Positions 1 to 6,121 of a DNA stretch of 6,121 bases are shown in pieces. Below the pieces are notes generated by a model. That model ran no database searches. It had not been told where the DNA came from and saw nothing but the letters and a program-made list of their open reading frames with translations. Every line of letters begins with the position of its first letter. The stretch's first letter is position 1. Source of the stretch: an uncultured Fusobacteriaceae bacterium (GTDB lineage Bacteria > Fusobacteriota > Fusobacteriia > Fusobacteriales > Fusobacteriaceae). The position numbers and the translations under genes are program-made. The DNA is taken from positions 1 to 6,121 of the forward strand of contig CAMTJB010000070.1 in the NCBI GenBank assembly GCA_947072715.1. Reading direction: 5' to 3'.

Positions 1-58
1 TTTTAATTTGTTATAATGAATTGCAACGCAAAATTATTTGTTTATTTACTTTATGTTT

Positions 59-97
59 AAAAGGGACTAGTTTGACATAGTCCCTTTTATTTTTTTG
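59..97 (+). terminator. Rho-independent terminator of an upstream gene
   Basis: A perfect 11-bp stem (AAAAGGGACTA at 59-69 pairing with TAGTCCCTTTT at 78-88) closes an 8-nt loop and is followed by a T-rich tract to about position 97. This is the classic intrinsic terminator shape reading on the + strand. No gene end can be confidently assigned in bases 1-58, so the terminated gene probably lies outside the window. The left arm is preceded by few A residues, so the structure is a weaker terminator for the opposite strand. Confidence 0.85.
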
Positions 98-178: not shown

Positions 179-207
179 TTGACTTATACAACCAATAGTT
201 GTATATT
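179..207 (+). promoter_or_regulatory. Predicted sigma-70-type promoter of the operon
   Basis: TTGACT (179-184) and TATATT (202-207) are separated by 17 nt, each one mismatch from the -35 and -10 consensus. Transcription would start near 214, giving a 5' leader of about 40 nt before the start codon at 256. It is the only well-spaced promoter seen between the upstream terminator and the first gene. No comparable site or terminator was seen in the short gaps between the following genes, so this promoter probably drives all six. Confidence 0.6.
185..205. promoter_or_regulatory. Inverted repeat, probable repressor operator within the promoter
   Basis: TATACAAC (185-192) and GTTGTATA (198-205) form a perfect 8+8 bp inverted repeat around a 5-nt centre (CAATA). 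The repeat fills the spacer and overlaps the first bases of the -10 element, so a dimeric protein bound here would block RNA polymerase. It has the size and symmetry of operators used by helix-turn-helix repressors such as GntR, TetR or LacI types. No regulator gene is in the window, so the family cannot be assigned. Substrate-inducible derepression is the likely logic (inference). Confidence 0.5.
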
Positions 208-255: not shown

Positions 256-1185
256 ATGGAAATTAAAACTGAAATAAAAATTTTAGATTATAAAGGATGG
301 AAAAACTCTATAAAAATTTCAAATGATAAAGCTGAATTAATTATTACTACAGATATAGGTCCTAGAATCATAAAATATGCTTTGATAGGAAAAAATAATG
401 AATTTTGTGAAATAGATTCTGAGGTAGGAAGCATGGATAAAAGGAACTTTACAATGTATGGCGGACACAGACTCTGGCATTCACCTCAAATAGAACCTAG
501 AAATAGTCAACCAGATAATGAAAAATTGGATTACTCCATAAACAAAAATAGTGTTACAGTTTTTCAAAAAGTTGAGGAAAAAACTGGACTACAAAAAGAT
601 ATAGAGGTATTTTTATTAAATAATAGTTCTAAAGTAAAAGTAATACATAGAATTTATAATAAAAATTTGTGGGATATTGAATTTGCAGTATGGTCTTTAT
701 CTATGATGGAAAAAGGTGGTTTTGAAATAATTCCTATAAATAAAGATGATACAGCATGCCTTCCAAATAGAACAATTACTTATTGGCCTTGGACAAAACA
801 AAATGATTCAAGGATTTTTTATGGAGAAAATAGTATTTTTATAAAGCAAGATGTTAATAGAGGTATTGAGTTTGAAGATACTCTTAAAATTGGTACTAAT
901 AATAAAGAGGGATGGGTAGCCTACCTAAATAGAGGACACGTTTTTGTAAAAACATTCAACTATGAAGAGAATGAAATCTATCCTGATAATGGATCTTCCT
1001 ATGAGACATTTACAAATAATTTTATGCTTGAACTTGAGACATTAAGTCCATTGAAAAAAATAAAACCTAATTCTTATATAGAGCACATAGAAGAGTGGGA
1101 TATTTTTGAAAATATCCATGATTTTATATTAGAAAAAGGCATTAATGGAGACTTTGCTCAGTATAACCTTCAACTAACTAAATAA
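256..1185 (+). CDS. DUF4380 family protein, aldose-epimerase-like fold (putative sugar-binding or mutarotase-like)
   Basis: A 309-residue soluble protein with no signal peptide. Family-like stretches are an N-terminal NDKAELIITTDIGPRII segment (GPR at 35-37), YGGHRLWHSPQ (68-78, with H71 and H75), PDN (86-88), EGWVAYLNRGHVFVKTF (218-234), YPD (242-244) and MLELETLSPL (257-266), followed by HIEEW (277-281). This pattern recalls DUF4380 proteins, which are predicted to take the galactose-mutarotase-like beta-sandwich fold. No catalytic activity can be read directly. The conserved His, Arg and Glu residues are candidates for a sugar site. It is the first gene of the operon, 43 nt before a URO-D methyltransferase and two genes before a sugar transporter. 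A role in handling the anomers of an imported (possibly O-methylated) sugar is an inference. It could instead be a glycoside-processing or binding protein. Confidence 0.75.
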   Translation: MEIKTEIKILDYKGWKNSIKISNDKAELIITTDIGPRIIKYALIGKNNEFCEIDSEVGSMDKRNFTMYGGHRLWHSPQIEPRNSQPDNEKLDYSINKNSVTVFQKVEEKTGLQKDIEVFLLNNSSKVKVIHRIYNKNLWDIEFAVWSLSMMEKGGFEIIPINKDDTACLPNRTITYWPWTKQNDSRIFYGENSIFIKQDVNRGIEFEDTLKIGTNNKEGWVAYLNRGHVFVKTFNYEENEIYPDNGSSYETFTNNFMLELETLSPLKKIKPNSYIEHIEEWDIFENIHDFILEKGINGDFAQYNLQLTK

Positions 1186-1228
1186 ACGTGGAATTATAGG
1201 AAAGCAAACTAGATTTTAGGAGGGATAA

Positions 1229-2515
1229 ATGAACTCAAGAGAAAGACTAATAAAAATATTAAATCATGAAAGCGTTGACCAAATAGTTGTTGATTTAGGT
1301 AGTAGTGTTATTTCTGGTATCTCTGCAACTGCTCTTCATAACTTAAGAAAAAAACTTAATTTAGAGGAACGAAAGGTTAAAATATCTGAACCCTTTCAGC
1401 TTTTAGGAGAAGTAGAAGAAGATGTTATTCAAGCATTGGGAATAGATATAGTTCCTGTTTCAGGTTCTGGAACTATTTTTGGATATAAGAATGAAAATTG
1501 GAAACCTTGGACTATGCAAAACGGAATTGAAGTTCTTGTTGGGGAAAACTTTAAAACAACTGTTGATGAGGATGGTGTTACCTATATTTATCCACAAGGT
1601 GATTTAGATGTTAAACCAAGTGCCCAAATGCCAAAAGATGGATATTATTTTGATAATATAGTTAGACAAAGTCCTATGGATTATGAAAATTTAAATGGAA
1701 GAGAAGATTTTAAAGATGATTTTGCAATAATCTCTGATGAGATTTTACAAGAGATAAAAGAAAAAGTTGATTACTATTATGAAAATACAGATTATGGAAT
1801 AAATCTTGGGGGATTTCAAGCTGGTTTAGGAGATTTTTGTCCATTACCTGCTGCTTGGTTAAAAGAACCTCAAGGTATAAGAAGTGTTGAGGAGTTTTTA
1901 ATGGCTCATTACTTATATCCTGAATATGTTAAGGATATATTTGAATTGCATACTGAAACTGCTCTAATAAATTTAGAACGACTTTATAAAACAGTTGGAA
2001 ACAAAGTTCAGATAATTCAAATATCAGCTACAGATTTCGGATGCCAACATGGGGAGATGATTGCTCCTGATATGTATCGAGAATTTTATAAGCCTTATCA
2101 TAAAAGATTAAATGACTGGGTTCATGAAAATACACAATGGAAAACTGCTTATCATAGTTGTGGTTCTATTCTAAATATTCTAGATGACTTTGTTGAAATT
2201 GGTGTTGACGTTTTAAATCCTGTTCAGTGTTCTGCTAAAGGGATGAATCCTAAGTTTTTAAAAGATAATTATGGAGATAAATTAGTCTTTTGGGGTGGTG
2301 GAATAGACACACAAAATACTTTACCCTTTGGTACTCCAGAAGATGTAAAAAAAGAGGTAACAGAAAGATTAGAAATATTCTCTAAAAATGGCGGTTTCAT
2401 TTTCAATCCTATTCACAATATCCAAGCTCCAACTCCTGTGGAAAATATCATTGCAATTTTTGAAGCTATTAAAGAATTTAACAATAAAATAAAACTAGGG
2501 TGTGATGACTCATGA
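1229..2515 (+). CDS. Long URO-D family corrinoid methyltransferase (probable substrate methyltransferase)
   Basis: A 428-residue protein of the uroporphyrinogen decarboxylase (URO-D) superfamily, in the branch with cobamide-dependent methyltransferases rather than HemE. Its start, MNSRERLIKILNHESVDQ, is the usual opening of such proteins. The C-terminal half holds YHSCG (H309, C311), the HxC half of the zinc site seen in MtaA/MtbA. It ends in GGGIDTQ (356-362), FGTPEDV (367-373) and GGFIFNPIHNIQAPTPVENI (388-407). Where MtaA/MtbA carry the third zinc ligand as Cys, this protein has H396. An insert-rich N-terminal region (about 75-215) makes it some 80 residues longer than the second URO-D protein downstream. 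A TAGGAGGG site lies just before the ATG. It overlaps the transporter gene by 4 nt (ATGA), so the two are probably translationally coupled. I infer that it demethylates the specific substrate and passes the methyl to the corrinoid protein. The reverse assignment with the other URO-D gene is possible. Confidence 0.8.
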   Translation: MNSRERLIKILNHESVDQIVVDLGSSVISGISATALHNLRKKLNLEERKVKISEPFQLLGEVEEDVIQALGIDIVPVSGSGTIFGYKNENWKPWTMQNGIEVLVGENFKTTVDEDGVTYIYPQGDLDVKPSAQMPKDGYYFDNIVRQSPMDYENLNGREDFKDDFAIISDEILQEIKEKVDYYYENTDYGINLGGFQAGLGDFCPLPAAWLKEPQGIRSVEEFLMAHYLYPEYVKDIFELHTETALINLERLYKTVGNKVQIIQISATDFGCQHGEMIAPDMYREFYKPYHKRLNDWVHENTQWKTAYHSCGSILNILDDFVEIGVDVLNPVQCSAKGMNPKFLKDNYGDKLVFWGGGIDTQNTLPFGTPEDVKKEVTERLEIFSKNGGFIFNPIHNIQAPTPVENIIAIFEAIKEFNNKIKLGCDDS

Positions 2516-3900
2516 GTAAGTTTAATACTGTTATTTTTATCTCTTTCGTTGCATCTCTAGGTGGTTTTTTATTTGGTTATGATACTGCTGTAATATCAGG
2601 AGCAGTGGAGTATCTTCAAATTTATTTCAACCTCTCCGCTGTTATGGTGGGCTGGGCTGTTTCTAGTGCCCTTGTAGGTTGTGTTCTTGGAAGTATTTTT
2701 GCAGCTAAACTCAATGAAAAATACGGCCGAAAAAAAGTAATGATTCTAGGTGCTGTATGTTTTGGAATTTCTGCATATTTCTCTGCAGTTCCTATTAACT
2801 TCAATGTTTTTGTATGGGCTAGAATCTTAGGTGGTTGCGGTGTTGGACTTGCTGCTTCTCTTGTTCCTCTTTACCTTTCTGAAATAGCTCCTTCTAAAAT
2901 AAGGGGTTCTCTTGGTGCATTTTTCCAAATTGCAATAGCTGTAGGAATGCTAATTGTATATTTTATAAACTACCGAATCTCATCTTTCAATACTTTAGAA
3001 TGGAATGTTTCCACTGGTTGGAGATGGATGTTTGGTTCAGAGCTAATTCCCGCTATACTTTTTTTCTTTCTATTATTTTTTATTCCAGAAAGTCCAAGAT
3101 GGTTAATGGCTAATGGAAAAGAAGAGGAAGCAAAAGCTATTCTTAAAAAATTAAATACTATACAAACTGCTGAAGAAGAATTTCTTTCTATAAAAAACAG
3201 TTTAGAAATGGAAAAAAAATTAAAAAATCAAGGAGTTAATTTAAAGGATTCAAAAACTAGTTCAAATATAAAAGGGATTAAAAAAGTTATAGGATTATGT
3301 GTACTTCTGGCCTTTTATCAACAAGTTTCTGGAATAAATGTAATTCTTTATTATACACCTACTGTTTTAAAAGCTGTAAGTACAGATGGAGGAAACTCAG
3401 CGTATTTTCAAAGTGTTTTAGTTGGTGCAACAATGGTAATTGGAGCTATTATAGCTTCCCTTACAGCAGATAAAATAGGGCGTAAAAAAATAATGGTAGT
3501 AGGTACCCTTTCAATGACACTATTTATGTTACTTATGGGGCATGAAATTTATTCTCAAAATATTAGTAAAATGGCCCTTATATATGTTATGGGCTATGTT
3601 CTAGCTTTCTCATGCTCAGCTGGTCCTATAGTATGGCTATATATTGCAGAGATATTACCTAACTCAATTAGAGCTAAAGGTGCTGCAATAGCAAGTTTAA
3701 CAGTTTGGGTAAGCAATATTGCTGTATCACAAACTTTTCCAATGTTAAATAATAACTCCATTTTAAAAGAAAATTTCCATGGTGCTTTTCCTTTTCTAAT
3801 CTATGGATTATTTTGTATAGCATTCTCTGTACTTTCGTTAAAATTACCTGAAACTAAAGGGAAATCTTTAGAAGAGATTGAAAAAATTTGGATAAAATAA
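2512..3900 (+). CDS. MFS sugar porter (XylE/AraE/GalP/IolT-like), sugar:H+ symporter
   Basis: A 462-residue inner-membrane transporter with 12 predicted helices (roughly 7-30, 45-66, 75-93, 98-120, 132-153, 172-192, 258-285, 297-317, 326-343, 353-378, 386-410, 424-445) and a cytoplasmic loop at 193-257. Sugar-porter hallmarks are GFLFGYDTAVISG (18-30), GRKK at 72-75 and again at 323-326, PESPRWL (192-198), QQVSGIN (270-276), RAKG (387-390) and PETKGKSLEE (446-455). Residues matching the XylE sugar contacts are present: Q139, Q270, Q271, N276 and W375. This supports a hexose, pentose or cyclitol substrate but does not pick one. The start at 2512 shares ATGA with the upstream stop and has only a weak AGGGTG site (2497-2502), so translation probably depends on ribosomes arriving from the upstream gene. 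Being embedded among methyltransferase genes, it most likely imports their methylated substrate (inference). Confidence 0.92.
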   Translation: MSKFNTVIFISFVASLGGFLFGYDTAVISGAVEYLQIYFNLSAVMVGWAVSSALVGCVLGSIFAAKLNEKYGRKKVMILGAVCFGISAYFSAVPINFNVFVWARILGGCGVGLAASLVPLYLSEIAPSKIRGSLGAFFQIAIAVGMLIVYFINYRISSFNTLEWNVSTGWRWMFGSELIPAILFFFLLFFIPESPRWLMANGKEEEAKAILKKLNTIQTAEEEFLSIKNSLEMEKKLKNQGVNLKDSKTSSNIKGIKKVIGLCVLLAFYQQVSGINVILYYTPTVLKAVSTDGGNSAYFQSVLVGATMVIGAIIASLTADKIGRKKIMVVGTLSMTLFMLLMGHEIYSQNISKMALIYVMGYVLAFSCSAGPIVWLYIAEILPNSIRAKGAAIASLTVWVSNIAVSQTFPMLNNNSILKENFHGAFPFLIYGLFCIAFSVLSLKLPETKGKSLEEIEKIWIK

Positions 3901-3913
3901 AAGGGGGAAATTT

Positions 3914-4957
3914 ATGAATTCTTTAGAACGAGTTGTAGCTATTCTTAATCACAAAGAAGCGGATAGAGTGCCTGTATATCCTTTACTAAACGGTATATCT
4001 AGAAAGTTGACTGGGGTAAGTTACAAAACTTGGGCAACTGATGCTGAAAAATGTGCTGAGGCATTTATTGCTGTTACAGAAAAATATGACTTAGATGTTA
4101 TCTGTACTTTAACTGATTTATCTGTTGAAGCAGCTGATTTTGGTCAAAAAATTATATTTCCAGAAAACGAAGCAGCACATCCTGACTACAGTGATATTCT
4201 TATAAAAGAGGAGAAAGATTATTATAATATAAAATATATTAATCCAAGATTATCTCCTCGAATGTCAGAGCATATTAAGCTTTGTAAAATACTTATGGAT
4301 AAAGTTGGAAGTGAAAAACCTATAGTTGCCTTTCTGTTTGCTCCACTTGGTATTTTAAGTATGCTTAGAAATCAACAAAATATTTTTTTAGATTTATATG
4401 ATTGCCCAAAGGCTGTTCATTACGCTCTTGAAGAGATTACTAACACTCTAATAGAATATTGTGATGCCCTAATAGAAACTGGAGTTCATGCCATAATGTT
4501 TGATACTCTGTTTGCTTGCCAAGGTATACTTGGAAAAGAGATGTGGAAAGAATTTGAGGGTGTATATATGAAACAAATTGCTGATTTTGTTCATAAAAAA
4601 GGGTGCATGGTTATGATTCATAATTGTGGAAAAGGAATTTATTTTGATGCTCAAATAGAGTCAATGTCACCTGAGGCAATATCTTTCCTACACATTCCAG
4701 ATGATTGTAAAAATTGGAAAGAGGTAAAGGAAAAATATGGTTTAAAAACAACATTGATAGGTTGTGTAGATCCAACTTGGATTCATAGTGCCTCTCCTGA
4801 AGATGTTGAAAAAAAATGCAAAGAACAGATTGATCTATTTGCAAAAGATGGAGGATTTATTTTAGCTACTGGTTGTGAATATCCAGCTAACTCAGAATTT
4901 AAAAATGCAGAGGTAATGGTTGAAACAGCTAAGACTTATGGAAAATATCAAAGTTAA
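3914..4957 (+). CDS. MtaA/MtbA-like URO-D methyltransferase (probable methylcorrinoid:carrier methyltransferase)
   Basis: A 347-residue URO-D superfamily methyltransferase, the usual length of MtaA/MtbA-type enzymes. It starts MNSLERVVAILNHKEADRVPV. The zinc site used to activate a thiol or other acceptor in this family is complete: MIHNCG (H236, C238) and ATGCEYP (C321) give the HxC...C pattern. FAPLGIL (142-148), IMFDTLFACQGIL (194-206) and GCVDPTW (283-289) are further family-like segments. It follows the transporter by 13 nt, with a G-rich AAGGGGG ribosome site, and its stop codon overlaps the ribosome site of the corrinoid protein 12 nt downstream. That close pairing suggests co-translation with its corrinoid partner. 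Archaeal relatives methylate coenzyme M. In a bacterium the acceptor is more likely tetrahydrofolate, and nothing else in the window looks like a dedicated methyl-THF enzyme (inference). Confidence 0.82.
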   Translation: MNSLERVVAILNHKEADRVPVYPLLNGISRKLTGVSYKTWATDAEKCAEAFIAVTEKYDLDVICTLTDLSVEAADFGQKIIFPENEAAHPDYSDILIKEEKDYYNIKYINPRLSPRMSEHIKLCKILMDKVGSEKPIVAFLFAPLGILSMLRNQQNIFLDLYDCPKAVHYALEEITNTLIEYCDALIETGVHAIMFDTLFACQGILGKEMWKEFEGVYMKQIADFVHKKGCMVMIHNCGKGIYFDAQIESMSPEAISFLHIPDDCKNWKEVKEKYGLKTTLIGCVDPTWIHSASPEDVEKKCKEQIDLFAKDGGFILATGCEYPANSEFKNAEVMVETAKTYGKYQS

Positions 4958-4969
4958 AGGAGATAAATT

Positions 4970-5614
4970 ATGGAGATTTTGAATTTAATAAGCGAGGCAA
5001 CACAAAGGGGAAAAGCTCCCACAGTAAGAGAACTTGTTGCTAAAGCTATCATAGAAAATATAGAAGCTAAAACTATTCTAAATGAAGGTTTATTAAAAGG
5101 GATGATGATTTTAGGGGAAAAATTTAAAAGAAACGAAGCCTTTGTTCCAGAGGTATTAATTGCTGCAAGAGCCATGAATGAAGGAACTAAAATATTGGAA
5201 GTTGAATTACTAAAAGCAGGAGTAAAACCTATTGGAAAAGCTATAATCGGCACTGTAAAAGGAGATCTTCATGACATTGGTAAGAATTTAGTTGGTATGA
5301 TGTTAAAAGGTGCTGGTATCGAAGTTATAGATTTAGGAGTAAACTGCGATGCTGAAAAATATATAAAAGCAGCAGAGGATAACCAAGCTAACTTAATAGT
5401 TCTTTCTGCTCTTTTAACAACAACTATGCCATATATGGAGGAGGTTATTAAAACTTTAGAAGTAAGAGGACTAAGAGATAAATATAGTGTTCTTATTGGC
5501 GGGGCTCCAATTAGTGAGGAATACTGTAAAAAAATTGGAGCAAATTTTTATACATCTGATGCTACAACTTGTGCCCAAAAAGCTCGTGAATTAATTTTAC
5601 AGTATAAAAATTAA
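4970..5614 (+). CDS. Corrinoid (B12-binding) protein of a methyltransferase system, MtaC/MtbC/MttC-like
   Basis: A 214-residue cytoplasmic protein of the usual length for corrinoid shuttle proteins. Residues 1-85 form the helical cap domain (including FVPEVLIAARAMNEG, 58-72). Residues 89-214 form the Rossmann-like cobalamin domain. The base-off/His-on signature is complete: D99-L-H101-D-I-G104, then S146-A-L148, then GG at 177-178. H101 is the expected lower axial ligand to cobalt. The protein would receive a methyl group on Co(I) from one methyltransferase and deliver it to the other. The start at 4970 is set by AAAGGAGAT (4956-4964), which overlaps the previous gene's stop codon. A 39-nt gap leads to the activator gene. 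The substrate specificity (methanol, amines or ethers) cannot be read from this protein. Confidence 0.93.
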   Translation: MEILNLISEATQRGKAPTVRELVAKAIIENIEAKTILNEGLLKGMMILGEKFKRNEAFVPEVLIAARAMNEGTKILEVELLKAGVKPIGKAIIGTVKGDLHDIGKNLVGMMLKGAGIEVIDLGVNCDAEKYIKAAEDNQANLIVLSALLTTTMPYMEEVIKTLEVRGLRDKYSVLIGGAPISEEYCKKIGANFYTSDATTCAQKARELILQYKN

Positions 5615-5653
5615 GATAATTTTCTAAAATTTTTCTCATAAAGGAGGTATAAA

Positions 5654-6121
5654 ATGGAGATTTTAATTAAATTTAATGAAGATAAAAAAAACAATGGCAA
5701 CAAGAAAAAACTATTAAATATATTAAGAGAAAAAAATATCTTCCTAAATTCTGACTGTGATGGAAAGACCTCTAAATGTGGAAAATGTAAAATAAAAATA
5801 AAAGATTTAAATTTTGAATTAACAGAAGAGGACAGATTACATCTTTCTAAAATTGAGATTGAAGAGGGATTCAGATTAGCTTGTAAAATTTATCCCAAAG
5901 AAGATATTGTTGTTATTTATGATGAGACGGATAGAGCTGAAAACTATAGTATACTTTCTGATTTTTTAGAAAAAGAGGGGCTAAAAAATAAAAAATTTAG
6001 AAAAGGATACGGTGTTGCTGTAGACCTTGGAACTACTACTATTGTAATGAAAATTTTTGATATGAGTGATGGGAATTTTATTGCTGAAGATAAACTTTTA
6101 AATCCTCAAATCATATATGGT
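5654..6121 (+). CDS. RACo-type corrinoid activation protein, 2Fe-2S ferredoxin plus ASKHA ATPase (5' part only)
   Basis: The frame is open from ATG 5654, with a strong AAAGGAGGT site (5640-5648), to the last base of the window: 156 codons, no stop. Residues 1-90 resemble a 2Fe-2S ferredoxin domain with four cysteines (C35, C42, C45, C77), including KCGKCKIKI (41-49). After a linker (about 91-117), GYGVAVDLGTTTI (118-130) is the phosphate-binding start of an ASKHA ATPase domain (DUF4445 type). This order matches reductive activators of corrinoid proteins (RACo, RamA-like in function), which use ATP to drive reduction of inactive Co(II) to Co(I). Family members are usually about 550-650 residues, so some three quarters lies beyond the window. 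The first cysteine spacing is C-x6-C rather than the C-x5-C I would expect. Its neighbour, the corrinoid protein, is the evident client. Confidence 0.85.
   Translation, partial: MEILIKFNEDKKNNGNKKKLLNILREKNIFLNSDCDGKTSKCGKCKIKIKDLNFELTEEDRLHLSKIEIEEGFRLACKIYPKEDIVVIYDETDRAENYSILSDFLEKEGLKNKKFRKGYGVAVDLGTTTIVMKIFDMSDGNFIAEDKLLNPQIIYG

What the first reader, a model, noticed from the sequence alone, without database searches (positions are those of the whole stretch)
256..6121. Possible anaerobic O-demethylation pathway for methylated sugars or cyclitols
A complete corrinoid methyl-transfer set (two URO-D methyltransferases, a B12 protein and a RACo-type activator) shares one operon with an MFS sugar porter and an aldose-epimerase-like DUF4380 protein. 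Known corrinoid O-demethylases act mainly on methanol, methylamines, glycine betaine or methoxylated aromatics, and those loci do not usually include a sugar porter plus a mutarotase-like protein. The combination points to a methyl ether of a sugar or cyclitol (for example O-methyl hexoses, O-methyl pentoses or methyl-inositols from plant or algal polymers). The substrate would be imported, demethylated, and split between the C1 pathway and sugar fermentation. The substrate itself is not readable from the sequence.
Basis: partly seen in the sequence, partly recalled or inferred. Interest (0 to 1): 0.8.

Follow-up and report, generated by a model that had tools for sequence, protein, structure and literature searches.

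The report
Likely sugar O-demethylation operon in anaerobes
A gene set in an anaerobic bacterium looks built to import a methylated sugar, pull off its methyl group with a vitamin-B12 protein and free the sugar for use; how anaerobes demethylate sugars is an open question.

Summary
The six genes are as described: mutarotase-like protein, long URO-D protein (UROL), sugar porter, short URO-D protein (UROS), corrinoid protein and a cut RACo. The sugar link holds beyond the window: in 100 UROL loci, transporter or LacI-type hits are three times denser near UROL, and an Ignavibacteriales genome has LacI, corrinoid protein, isomerase-like protein, UROL and sugar porter in a row. The methyl link holds too: 46 of 49 UROL genomes hold RACo. 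In one of them, G017, UROL is the only URO-D found, beside inositol dehydrogenase genes, with a corrinoid-RACo module elsewhere. UROL has a His-Cys-His metal site in 99 of 100 loci, UROS His-Cys-Cys in 120 of 120 listed relatives; a published rule calls the latter sulfur-type. Best reading: UROL moves a methyl from an O-methyl reducing sugar to the corrinoid protein and UROS passes it on, perhaps to a thiol. Family-wide, sugars and cyclitols both look possible; in the window the mutarotase favours a sugar. Substrate, acceptor and activity are unproven. My paper searches listed no report of corrinoid sugar demethylation.

The parts
58..89 (+). terminator-like hairpin before the operon
   Evidence: 12-pair stem followed by a T run
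179..207 (+). likely operon promoter, TTGACT-17-TATATT
   Evidence: 10 of 12 consensus matches; the number of promoter-like sites in the window is not above shuffles (26 against a mean of 29.4), so placement is the main support
185..205 (.). operator-like inverted repeat, 8-base arms and 5-base spacer, between the promoter hexamers
   Evidence: read from the sequence
256..1185 (+). mutarotase-like protein, 309 aa
1229..2515 (+). UROL, long URO-D protein, 428 aa: proposed sugar:corrinoid methyltransferase (MT-I); metal-site residues H309, C311, H396
   Evidence: PF01208; AF2 model pLDDT 91; Foldseek best 4ay7, E 7.8e-13; HCH in 99 of 100 loci, HDH in one
2512..3900 (+). MFS sugar porter, 462 aa, XylE-like
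   Evidence: TIGR00879 363.6 bits, above cut-off 237.8; XylE chains 328 bits; 11 of 13 XylE positions checked are kept, Q175 is M and Q415 is V (the choice of positions is recalled)
3914..4957 (+). UROS, short URO-D protein, 347 aa: proposed methyl-corrinoid:acceptor methyltransferase (MT-II); H236, C238, C321
   Evidence: PF01208 207.3 bits; 4ay7 50 bits by profile; HCC in 120 of 120 listed relatives
4970..5614 (+). corrinoid protein, 214 aa
   Evidence: PF02310 86.3 bits and PF02607 63.3 bits; nearest structure 1y80, E 3.8e-48
5654..6121 (+). N-terminal part of the RACo corrinoid activator, cut by the window end
   Evidence: Fer2 29.6 bits, RACo_middle 40.6 bits over positions 1-38 of 163

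Best explanation
The operon serves anaerobic O-demethylation of an O-methylated reducing monosaccharide. The sugar porter imports it (inferred from family). The mutarotase-like protein interconverts its anomers (inferred from fold). UROL binds the sugar methyl ether at a His-Cys-His metal site and passes the methyl to Co(I) of the corrinoid protein (inferred). RACo re-reduces inactive Co(II) (inferred from family). UROS, with a His-Cys-Cys site, moves the methyl from the corrinoid to an acceptor, perhaps a sulfur compound (inferred, weakest step). The freed sugar enters ordinary sugar metabolism. None of these steps has been shown by experiment.
For: Sugar side: transporter/LacI-type hits 88 within 4 kb of UROL and 29 beyond, in 678 and 669 kb. 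Pfam tallies: of 106 near genes Peripla_BP_4 8, BPD_transp_2 8, LacI 7, Sugar_tr 4, GH2 3; none of these reaches 2 in 106 far genes, which do hold ROK 2 and RhaA 1. Mutarotase before UROL in L038; DUF4432, which I recall as mutarotase-like, in L115; sugar-isomerase-like proteins in L036 and L114. Methyl side: RACo in 46 of 49 UROL genomes, 1 of 14 controls; 29 of 30 UROL genomes against 41 of 164 others in a phylum sample, p 3e-14 without correction for kinship, 20 of 21 at a stricter UROL cut; corrinoid gene within 4 kb, same strand, in 8 of 100 loci. Both: genome G029 holds LacI, corrinoid protein, isomerase-like, UROL, sugar porter (L036) and RACo with an HCC URO-D (L124). G017: one URO-D at E 1e-8, the UROL, in a run of genes with sugar-type ABC genes, IolG and IolM; no MttB or MtaB; corrinoid protein, Pterin_bind protein and RACo elsewhere. 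Metal sites: with the rule in PMC10418091.
Against: No activity or substrate is shown. 3 of 49 UROL genomes show no RACo (G008, G020, G030; G030 is the L038 genome). RACo may follow anaerobic life in general; 4 of 16 genomes tested hold MtaB, and in G001, G015 and G047 MtaB lies in the corrinoid-RACo module. Only 8 of 100 loci have a corrinoid gene within 4 kb on the same strand. UROS is in 5 of 49 UROL genomes, and no corrinoid gene was hit in the 9.7-17 kb fetched around it. 64 of 100 loci show no transporter-like hit within 4 kb on the same strand, partly because contigs are short. The clearest single-genome case, G017, points to a cyclitol rather than a sugar.
Confidence: 0.57

Rival explanations
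1. The substrate is a methyl cyclitol such as a methyl-inositol; the mutarotase-like protein then has another role.
For: In L021 (genome G017) UROL lies in one same-strand run of genes with inositol 2-dehydrogenase IolG (464 bits, cut-off 355), scyllo-inosose 3-dehydrogenase IolM (509 bits, cut-off 450) and a rhizopine-type binding protein (191 bits, below cut-off 420); rhizopine is, as I recall, an O-methyl inositol amine. Relatives of these dehydrogenase genes fall in the same clusters in L074 and L029. Some sugar porters carry inositols (recalled).
Against: Cyclitols have no anomeric centre, so a mutarotase would have no role; the window holds no inositol dehydrogenase, though genes beyond its end are unseen.
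Confidence: 0.14
2. The substrate is a methyl glycoside, with the methyl at the anomeric oxygen; demethylation yields one anomer, which the mutarotase equilibrates.
For: Explains mutarotase and porter together; same gene evidence as the best explanation.
Against: Glycosidases could do this without a corrinoid system; nothing in the sequence favours the anomeric position.
Confidence: 0.1
3. The substrate is a methoxylated aromatic glycoside: the porter and mutarotase serve the sugar part, and UROL demethylates the aromatic ring like MtvB, OdmB or VdmB.
For: Known bacterial URO-D O-demethylases act on methoxylated aromatics (PMC13222342, section 9); Lactonifactor longoviformis and Blautia species hold UROL, and their aromatic demethylation is recalled.
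Against: The UROL profile finds 4ay7 but not CdmB, the solved relative of the aromatic clade, at E 0.001; neighbours are monosaccharide-type transporters, isomerase-like proteins and inositol dehydrogenases; a XylE-like porter is unlikely to take an aromatic glycoside (knowledge of the family).
Confidence: 0.09
4. This is a type 1 mlp-like cluster for methyl-sulfur or methyl-selenium compounds, with sugar genes nearby by chance.
For: Two URO-D proteins, a corrinoid protein and RACo without a folate methyltransferase resemble type 1 mlp clusters (PMC10418091); UROS is HCC in 120 of 120 listed relatives.
Against: UROL has His for the third Cys in 100 of 100 loci, whereas the Mlps are HCC except several Mlp1; sugar genes recur around UROL; no sulfur or selenium gene among the six.
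Confidence: 0.06
5. UROL is not a methyltransferase but another URO-D-fold enzyme of sugar metabolism, such as a decarboxylase.
For: In 92 of 100 loci no corrinoid gene was hit within 4 kb on the same strand; the fold is as close to uroporphyrinogen decarboxylases.
Against: RACo in 46 of 49 and 29 of 30 UROL genomes; conserved metal site at the MtaA position; G017 has a corrinoid-RACo module and UROL as its only URO-D.
Confidence: 0.04

Closest known systems
Corrinoid O-demethylase systems of acetogens (MtvB/OdmB/VdmB, MtoB) and CdmBCA
   Same: Same parts in kind: URO-D MT-I, corrinoid protein, MT-II, activator (PMC13222342, passages and section 9)
   Different: Substrates there are methoxylated aromatics or haloalkanes; MT-II there is CdmA/MtvA-like, here possibly UROS; the UROL profile does not find CdmB; sugar porter and mutarotase in the operon
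Type 1 mlp gene clusters
   Same: More than one URO-D protein with corrinoid protein and activator, no folate methyltransferase in the stretch seen
   Different: UROL is HCH, not HCC; no sulfur/selenium genes among the six; sugar context
MtaA/MtbA methylcobalamin:CoM methyltransferases (4ay7)
   Same: URO-D fold; UROS keeps H, C, C at the three metal positions
   Different: UROS 36.7 bits to 4ay7 and below the NCBIfam MtaA/MtbA cut-offs; no evidence for coenzyme M
P450 demethylation of 6-O-methyl-galactose
   Same: Same overall task, O-demethylation of a sugar
   Different: Oxidative and aerobic; PMC12316285 (passages) says the anaerobic route has not been elucidated
TTE1925-type mutarotase and XylE-type sugar porter
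   Same: Near full-length family matches; fold or residues
   Different: Below the equivalog cut-offs; sugar specificity unknown

Membership tests
Corrinoid methyltransferase system | corrinoid protein with both B12-binding domains | tested here: met
   PF02607 and PF02310 over cut-off
Corrinoid methyltransferase system | RACo-type activator | tested here: inconclusive
   Fer2 and the first 38 of 163 positions of RACo_middle, both over cut-off; the rest is beyond the window end
Corrinoid methyltransferase system | MT-I of a methyltransferase superfamily | tested here: met
   UROL, URO-D 82.2 bits against 23.9; activity not tested
Corrinoid methyltransferase system | MT-II to folate or thiol | tested here: inconclusive
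   UROS has the HCC signature; no Pterin_bind protein in the window
Aromatic O-demethylase / CdmB clade | sequence kinship with CdmB | tested here: not met
   profile of 26 UROL proteins finds only 4ay7 at E 0.001
Aromatic O-demethylase / CdmB clade | sequence kinship with MtvB, OdmB, VdmB | not tested
   their sequences were not at hand
Type 1 mlp cluster | proteins with His-Cys-Cys site | tested here: not met
   UROL is HCH; UROS alone meets it
Type 1 mlp cluster | kinship with Mlp2 and Mlp3 | not tested
   their sequences were not at hand
Type 1 mlp cluster | sulfur or selenium genes nearby | tested here: inconclusive
   none among the six genes; the rest of the genome is unseen
Sugar porter family TIGR00879 | score over curated cut-off | tested here: met
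   363.6 against 237.8 bits
XylE D-xylose transporter NF007484 | score over equivalog cut-off | tested here: not met
   425.4 against 608 bits
TTE1925 mutarotase NF052227 | score over equivalog cut-off | tested here: not met
   326.5 against 550 bits
Aldose 1-epimerase fold | fold | tested here: met
Methylated-sugar demethylase | methyl transfer from an O-methyl sugar | not testable with these tools
   needs a protein assay

The most novel reading that the evidence does not exclude
UROL proteins (URO-D, about 420 aa, His-Cys-His site) are a widespread, unrecognised family of O-demethylases for methylated sugars and cyclitols, spread over sugar and inositol operons of many anaerobic phyla and often sharing one corrinoid-RACo module elsewhere in the genome. 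In the window all parts sit in one operon, and the methyl goes to a sulfur acceptor through UROS rather than to folate. (Raised from 0.40 to 0.45 after the G017 inositol genes.)
Probability: 0.45. Interest if true: 0.85.

Novelty: new variant of a known kind. Interest (0 to 1): 0.7.

Why it matters
O-methyl sugars occur in plant, algal and bacterial polymers (general knowledge). Aerobes demethylate 6-O-methyl-galactose with a P450; [quoted passage not shown] This gene family gives named candidates, some in Blautia and Lactonifactor, that can be expressed and assayed, and would join carbohydrate use to C1 metabolism in anoxic habitats.

Tried and rejected
Own genome: none held, so kinase, MT-II and folate genes of this organism could not be sought. 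I had no genome handle in the Fusobacteriaceae; co-location there rests on equal contig lengths (20,992 for UROL plus mutarotase; 7,240 and 18,793 for UROL plus UROS), an inference and not a view of the DNA.

4-O-methyl-glucuronate: considered because of a 948-residue protein with a weak Glyco_hydro_67N match in the UROL operon of L007. The L006 homologue gives no family in Pfam or NCBIfam, and neutral-sugar porters rarely carry uronates (knowledge), so not adopted.

Rfam: nothing over gathering score. Plasmids: 3 records match UROL, the best at 28.7 percent identity over 98 percent; not followed. Structure and fold searches gave folds, no ligand.

Literature (open-licence PMC only): no report of corrinoid-dependent sugar demethylation appeared in the listings; subscription papers are mostly not held, so this is not proof of absence. 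Read: PMC10418091 outline and full Results; PMC13222342 passages and section 9; PMC12316285 passages. All others: search listing only.

Rows dropped: operons use 69 loci plus the window, because a longest-ORF caller lost UROL in 11 of 80; a codon-usage caller then placed all 100. One search used 106 of 115 near genes (same strand, within 600 bases, at least 100 aa) and 106 of 313 far genes, for the residue limit. RACo, corrinoid and UROS searches used 49 genomes, from 50 of the 80 loci. The URO-D census used 14 genomes and the MttB and MtaB censuses 16. Transporter references came from gene clusters around UROL, which favours near hits; the representatives themselves were left out, and the Pfam tally is free of that choice. 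L114 is the same place as L008, L113 as L019, L131 as L024 and L132 as L014; these later copies are not in the count of 100, in which no two UROL proteins are 95 percent identical.
Full report
What is in the window. Six genes run in one direction from 256 to the window end. They follow a terminator-like hairpin (58-89) and a promoter-like pair of hexamers (179-207) with an inverted repeat between them, and have gaps of -4 to 43 bases. In order: mutarotase-like, UROL, sugar porter, UROS, corrinoid protein, RACo start. G+C is 31 percent. The nearest named relatives are Fusobacteriaceae MAGs: 85 percent for the mutarotase, 71 percent for UROL.

Does the sugar link hold elsewhere? With 20 more from a phylum sample there are 100. 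Within 4 kb on the same strand 36 of 100 show a transporter-like hit. Counting transporter and LacI-type hits on either strand, 88 lie within 4 kb and 29 beyond, in nearly equal DNA. The Pfam comparison of 106 near and 106 far genes agrees, though the far genes also hold a few sugar families (ROK 2, RhaA 1). Six loci have a sugar porter of the window's type (121-394 bits) within 4 kb on the same strand: L033, L036, L075, L095, L099, L100. Of five of these checked with NCBIfam four pass the sugar-porter cut-off; the fifth, L036, is cut by its contig end, and the porter of L099 was not checked. A mutarotase of the window's family lies directly before UROL in L038, a weak match (45 bits) lies in L053, and a DUF4432 protein lies beside UROL in L115.

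Does the methyl link hold elsewhere? RACo is in 46 of 49 UROL genomes and in 1 of 14 control genomes. In 194 genomes of the phylum of G047 (an Opitutia record by its locus title), UROL at E 1e-60 is in 30 and RACo in 70; 29 of the 30 overlap, against 41 of the other 164; at E 1e-120 it is 20 of 21. Kinship is not corrected. B12-binding_2 is in 48 of 49, but also in 9 of 14 controls, so by itself it says little. Corrinoid genes lie within 4 kb of UROL on the same strand in 8 of 100 loci; the order corrinoid-UROL-URO-D recurs in L081, L083, L093 and L094.

Genomes with few candidates. G029 (locus L036) holds three URO-D proteins at E 1e-8: one that scores 471 bits and is probably HemE, an HCC one beside RACo (L124), and UROL in LacI-corrinoid-isomerase-like-UROL-sugar porter. 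That is the window's parts list in two places, with an isomerase-like protein where the window has the mutarotase. G040 holds two: UROL, in a locus with GH95 and NAGLU genes, and an HCC one in a corrinoid-RACo module. G017 holds one, the UROL; it lies in a same-strand run of genes (L021, 6995-21253) with ABC genes whose best matches are sugar types and with inositol 2-dehydrogenase IolG and scyllo-inosose 3-dehydrogenase IolM, both over their curated cut-offs; a second ABC set in the run matches polyamine and phosphonate types best. A corrinoid protein, a Pterin_bind protein and RACo lie together elsewhere in G017. G008 (L012) holds one, the UROL, and a short corrinoid protein, but no RACo was found. 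None of the four has MttB or MtaB. These are draft genomes of untold completeness. G017 suggests that there UROL works on a methylated inositol and that the methyl goes to folate.

Two metal sites. At the three metal positions of MtaA-type enzymes UROL has His-Cys-His in 99 of 100 loci and His-Asp-His in L036; all 120 listed database relatives are His-Cys-His. All 120 listed UROS relatives are His-Cys-Cys. Kountz and Balskus write that His-Cys-Cys marks sulfur-type enzymes, and that O-type enzymes replace one or both Cys by carboxylates or non-coordinating residues (PMC10418091). UROL's third residue is His, not among the replacements they list, so the fit is partial; the HDH case in L036 fits best. 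On this basis UROL is the sugar-side enzyme and UROS the acceptor-side enzyme.

Results against. Three UROL genomes show no RACo, among them that of L038, the best mutarotase neighbour. In G001, G015 and G047 the corrinoid-RACo module holds MtaB, a methanol enzyme, so RACo there may serve methanol; UROL would have to share the corrinoid protein. UROS is in 5 of 49 UROL genomes and no corrinoid gene was hit in the stretches fetched around it, so its partnership with UROL is not general, although UROL and UROS relatives share one more contig length, 18,793. Sulfur as acceptor is the weakest step. The G017 operon speaks for a cyclitol in that lineage.

Verdict. Demethylation of a methylated sugar is the best supported reading for the window, at about 0.57; its mutarotase favours a reducing sugar over a cyclitol, while the family as a whole may use both. 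It is a new variant of the corrinoid methyltransferase kind. The substrate needs a bench test.

Noticed in passing
window 185-205: Inverted repeat TATACAAC-5-GTTGTATA between the promoter hexamers, an operator-like site; no regulator gene is in the window.
   Followed up: no
L021:6995-21253 (genome G017), L012: UROL in a run of genes with IolG and IolM over curated cut-offs and a rhizopine-type binding protein below its cut-off; points to methyl-inositol use. L012 shows the same gene order in its shorter stretch, which ends before the place of the dehydrogenase genes.
   Followed up: partly
L038:723-1958, L053:7352-9943, L069:4676-5824: One gene cluster without Pfam match near UROL, in two loci together with a mutarotase-like gene.
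   Followed up: partly
L006:14406-17255, L007:14447-17293: A protein of about 949 aa in UROL-ABC operons (L006 is Blautia parvula), with a weak Glyco_hydro_67N match in L007 and none in L006.
   Followed up: partly
L083:8130-9545, L093, L094, L121, L128, L131: URO-D proteins of about 450-470 aa with Phe-Cys-Cys at the metal positions, in corrinoid gene neighbourhoods, some with CobW.
   Followed up: partly
L083:6417-8015: Fusion of CobW and DUF1638 in a corrinoid-UROL-RACo operon.
   Followed up: no
L028:6735-7142, L059:4055-4609: Macro-domain protein at the end of URO-D operons (Pfam match checked in L028 only; L059 is in the same cluster).
   Followed up: no
L116, L117: RACo-corrinoid-regulator-MtaB module of nearly the same gene sizes in two Clostridia genomes that each hold three UROL genes; families checked in L116 only, MtaB in both.
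   Followed up: partly
L114:10145-11578: A protein related to sulfoquinovose isomerase SftI (100 bits, cut-off 700) follows UROL.
   Followed up: no
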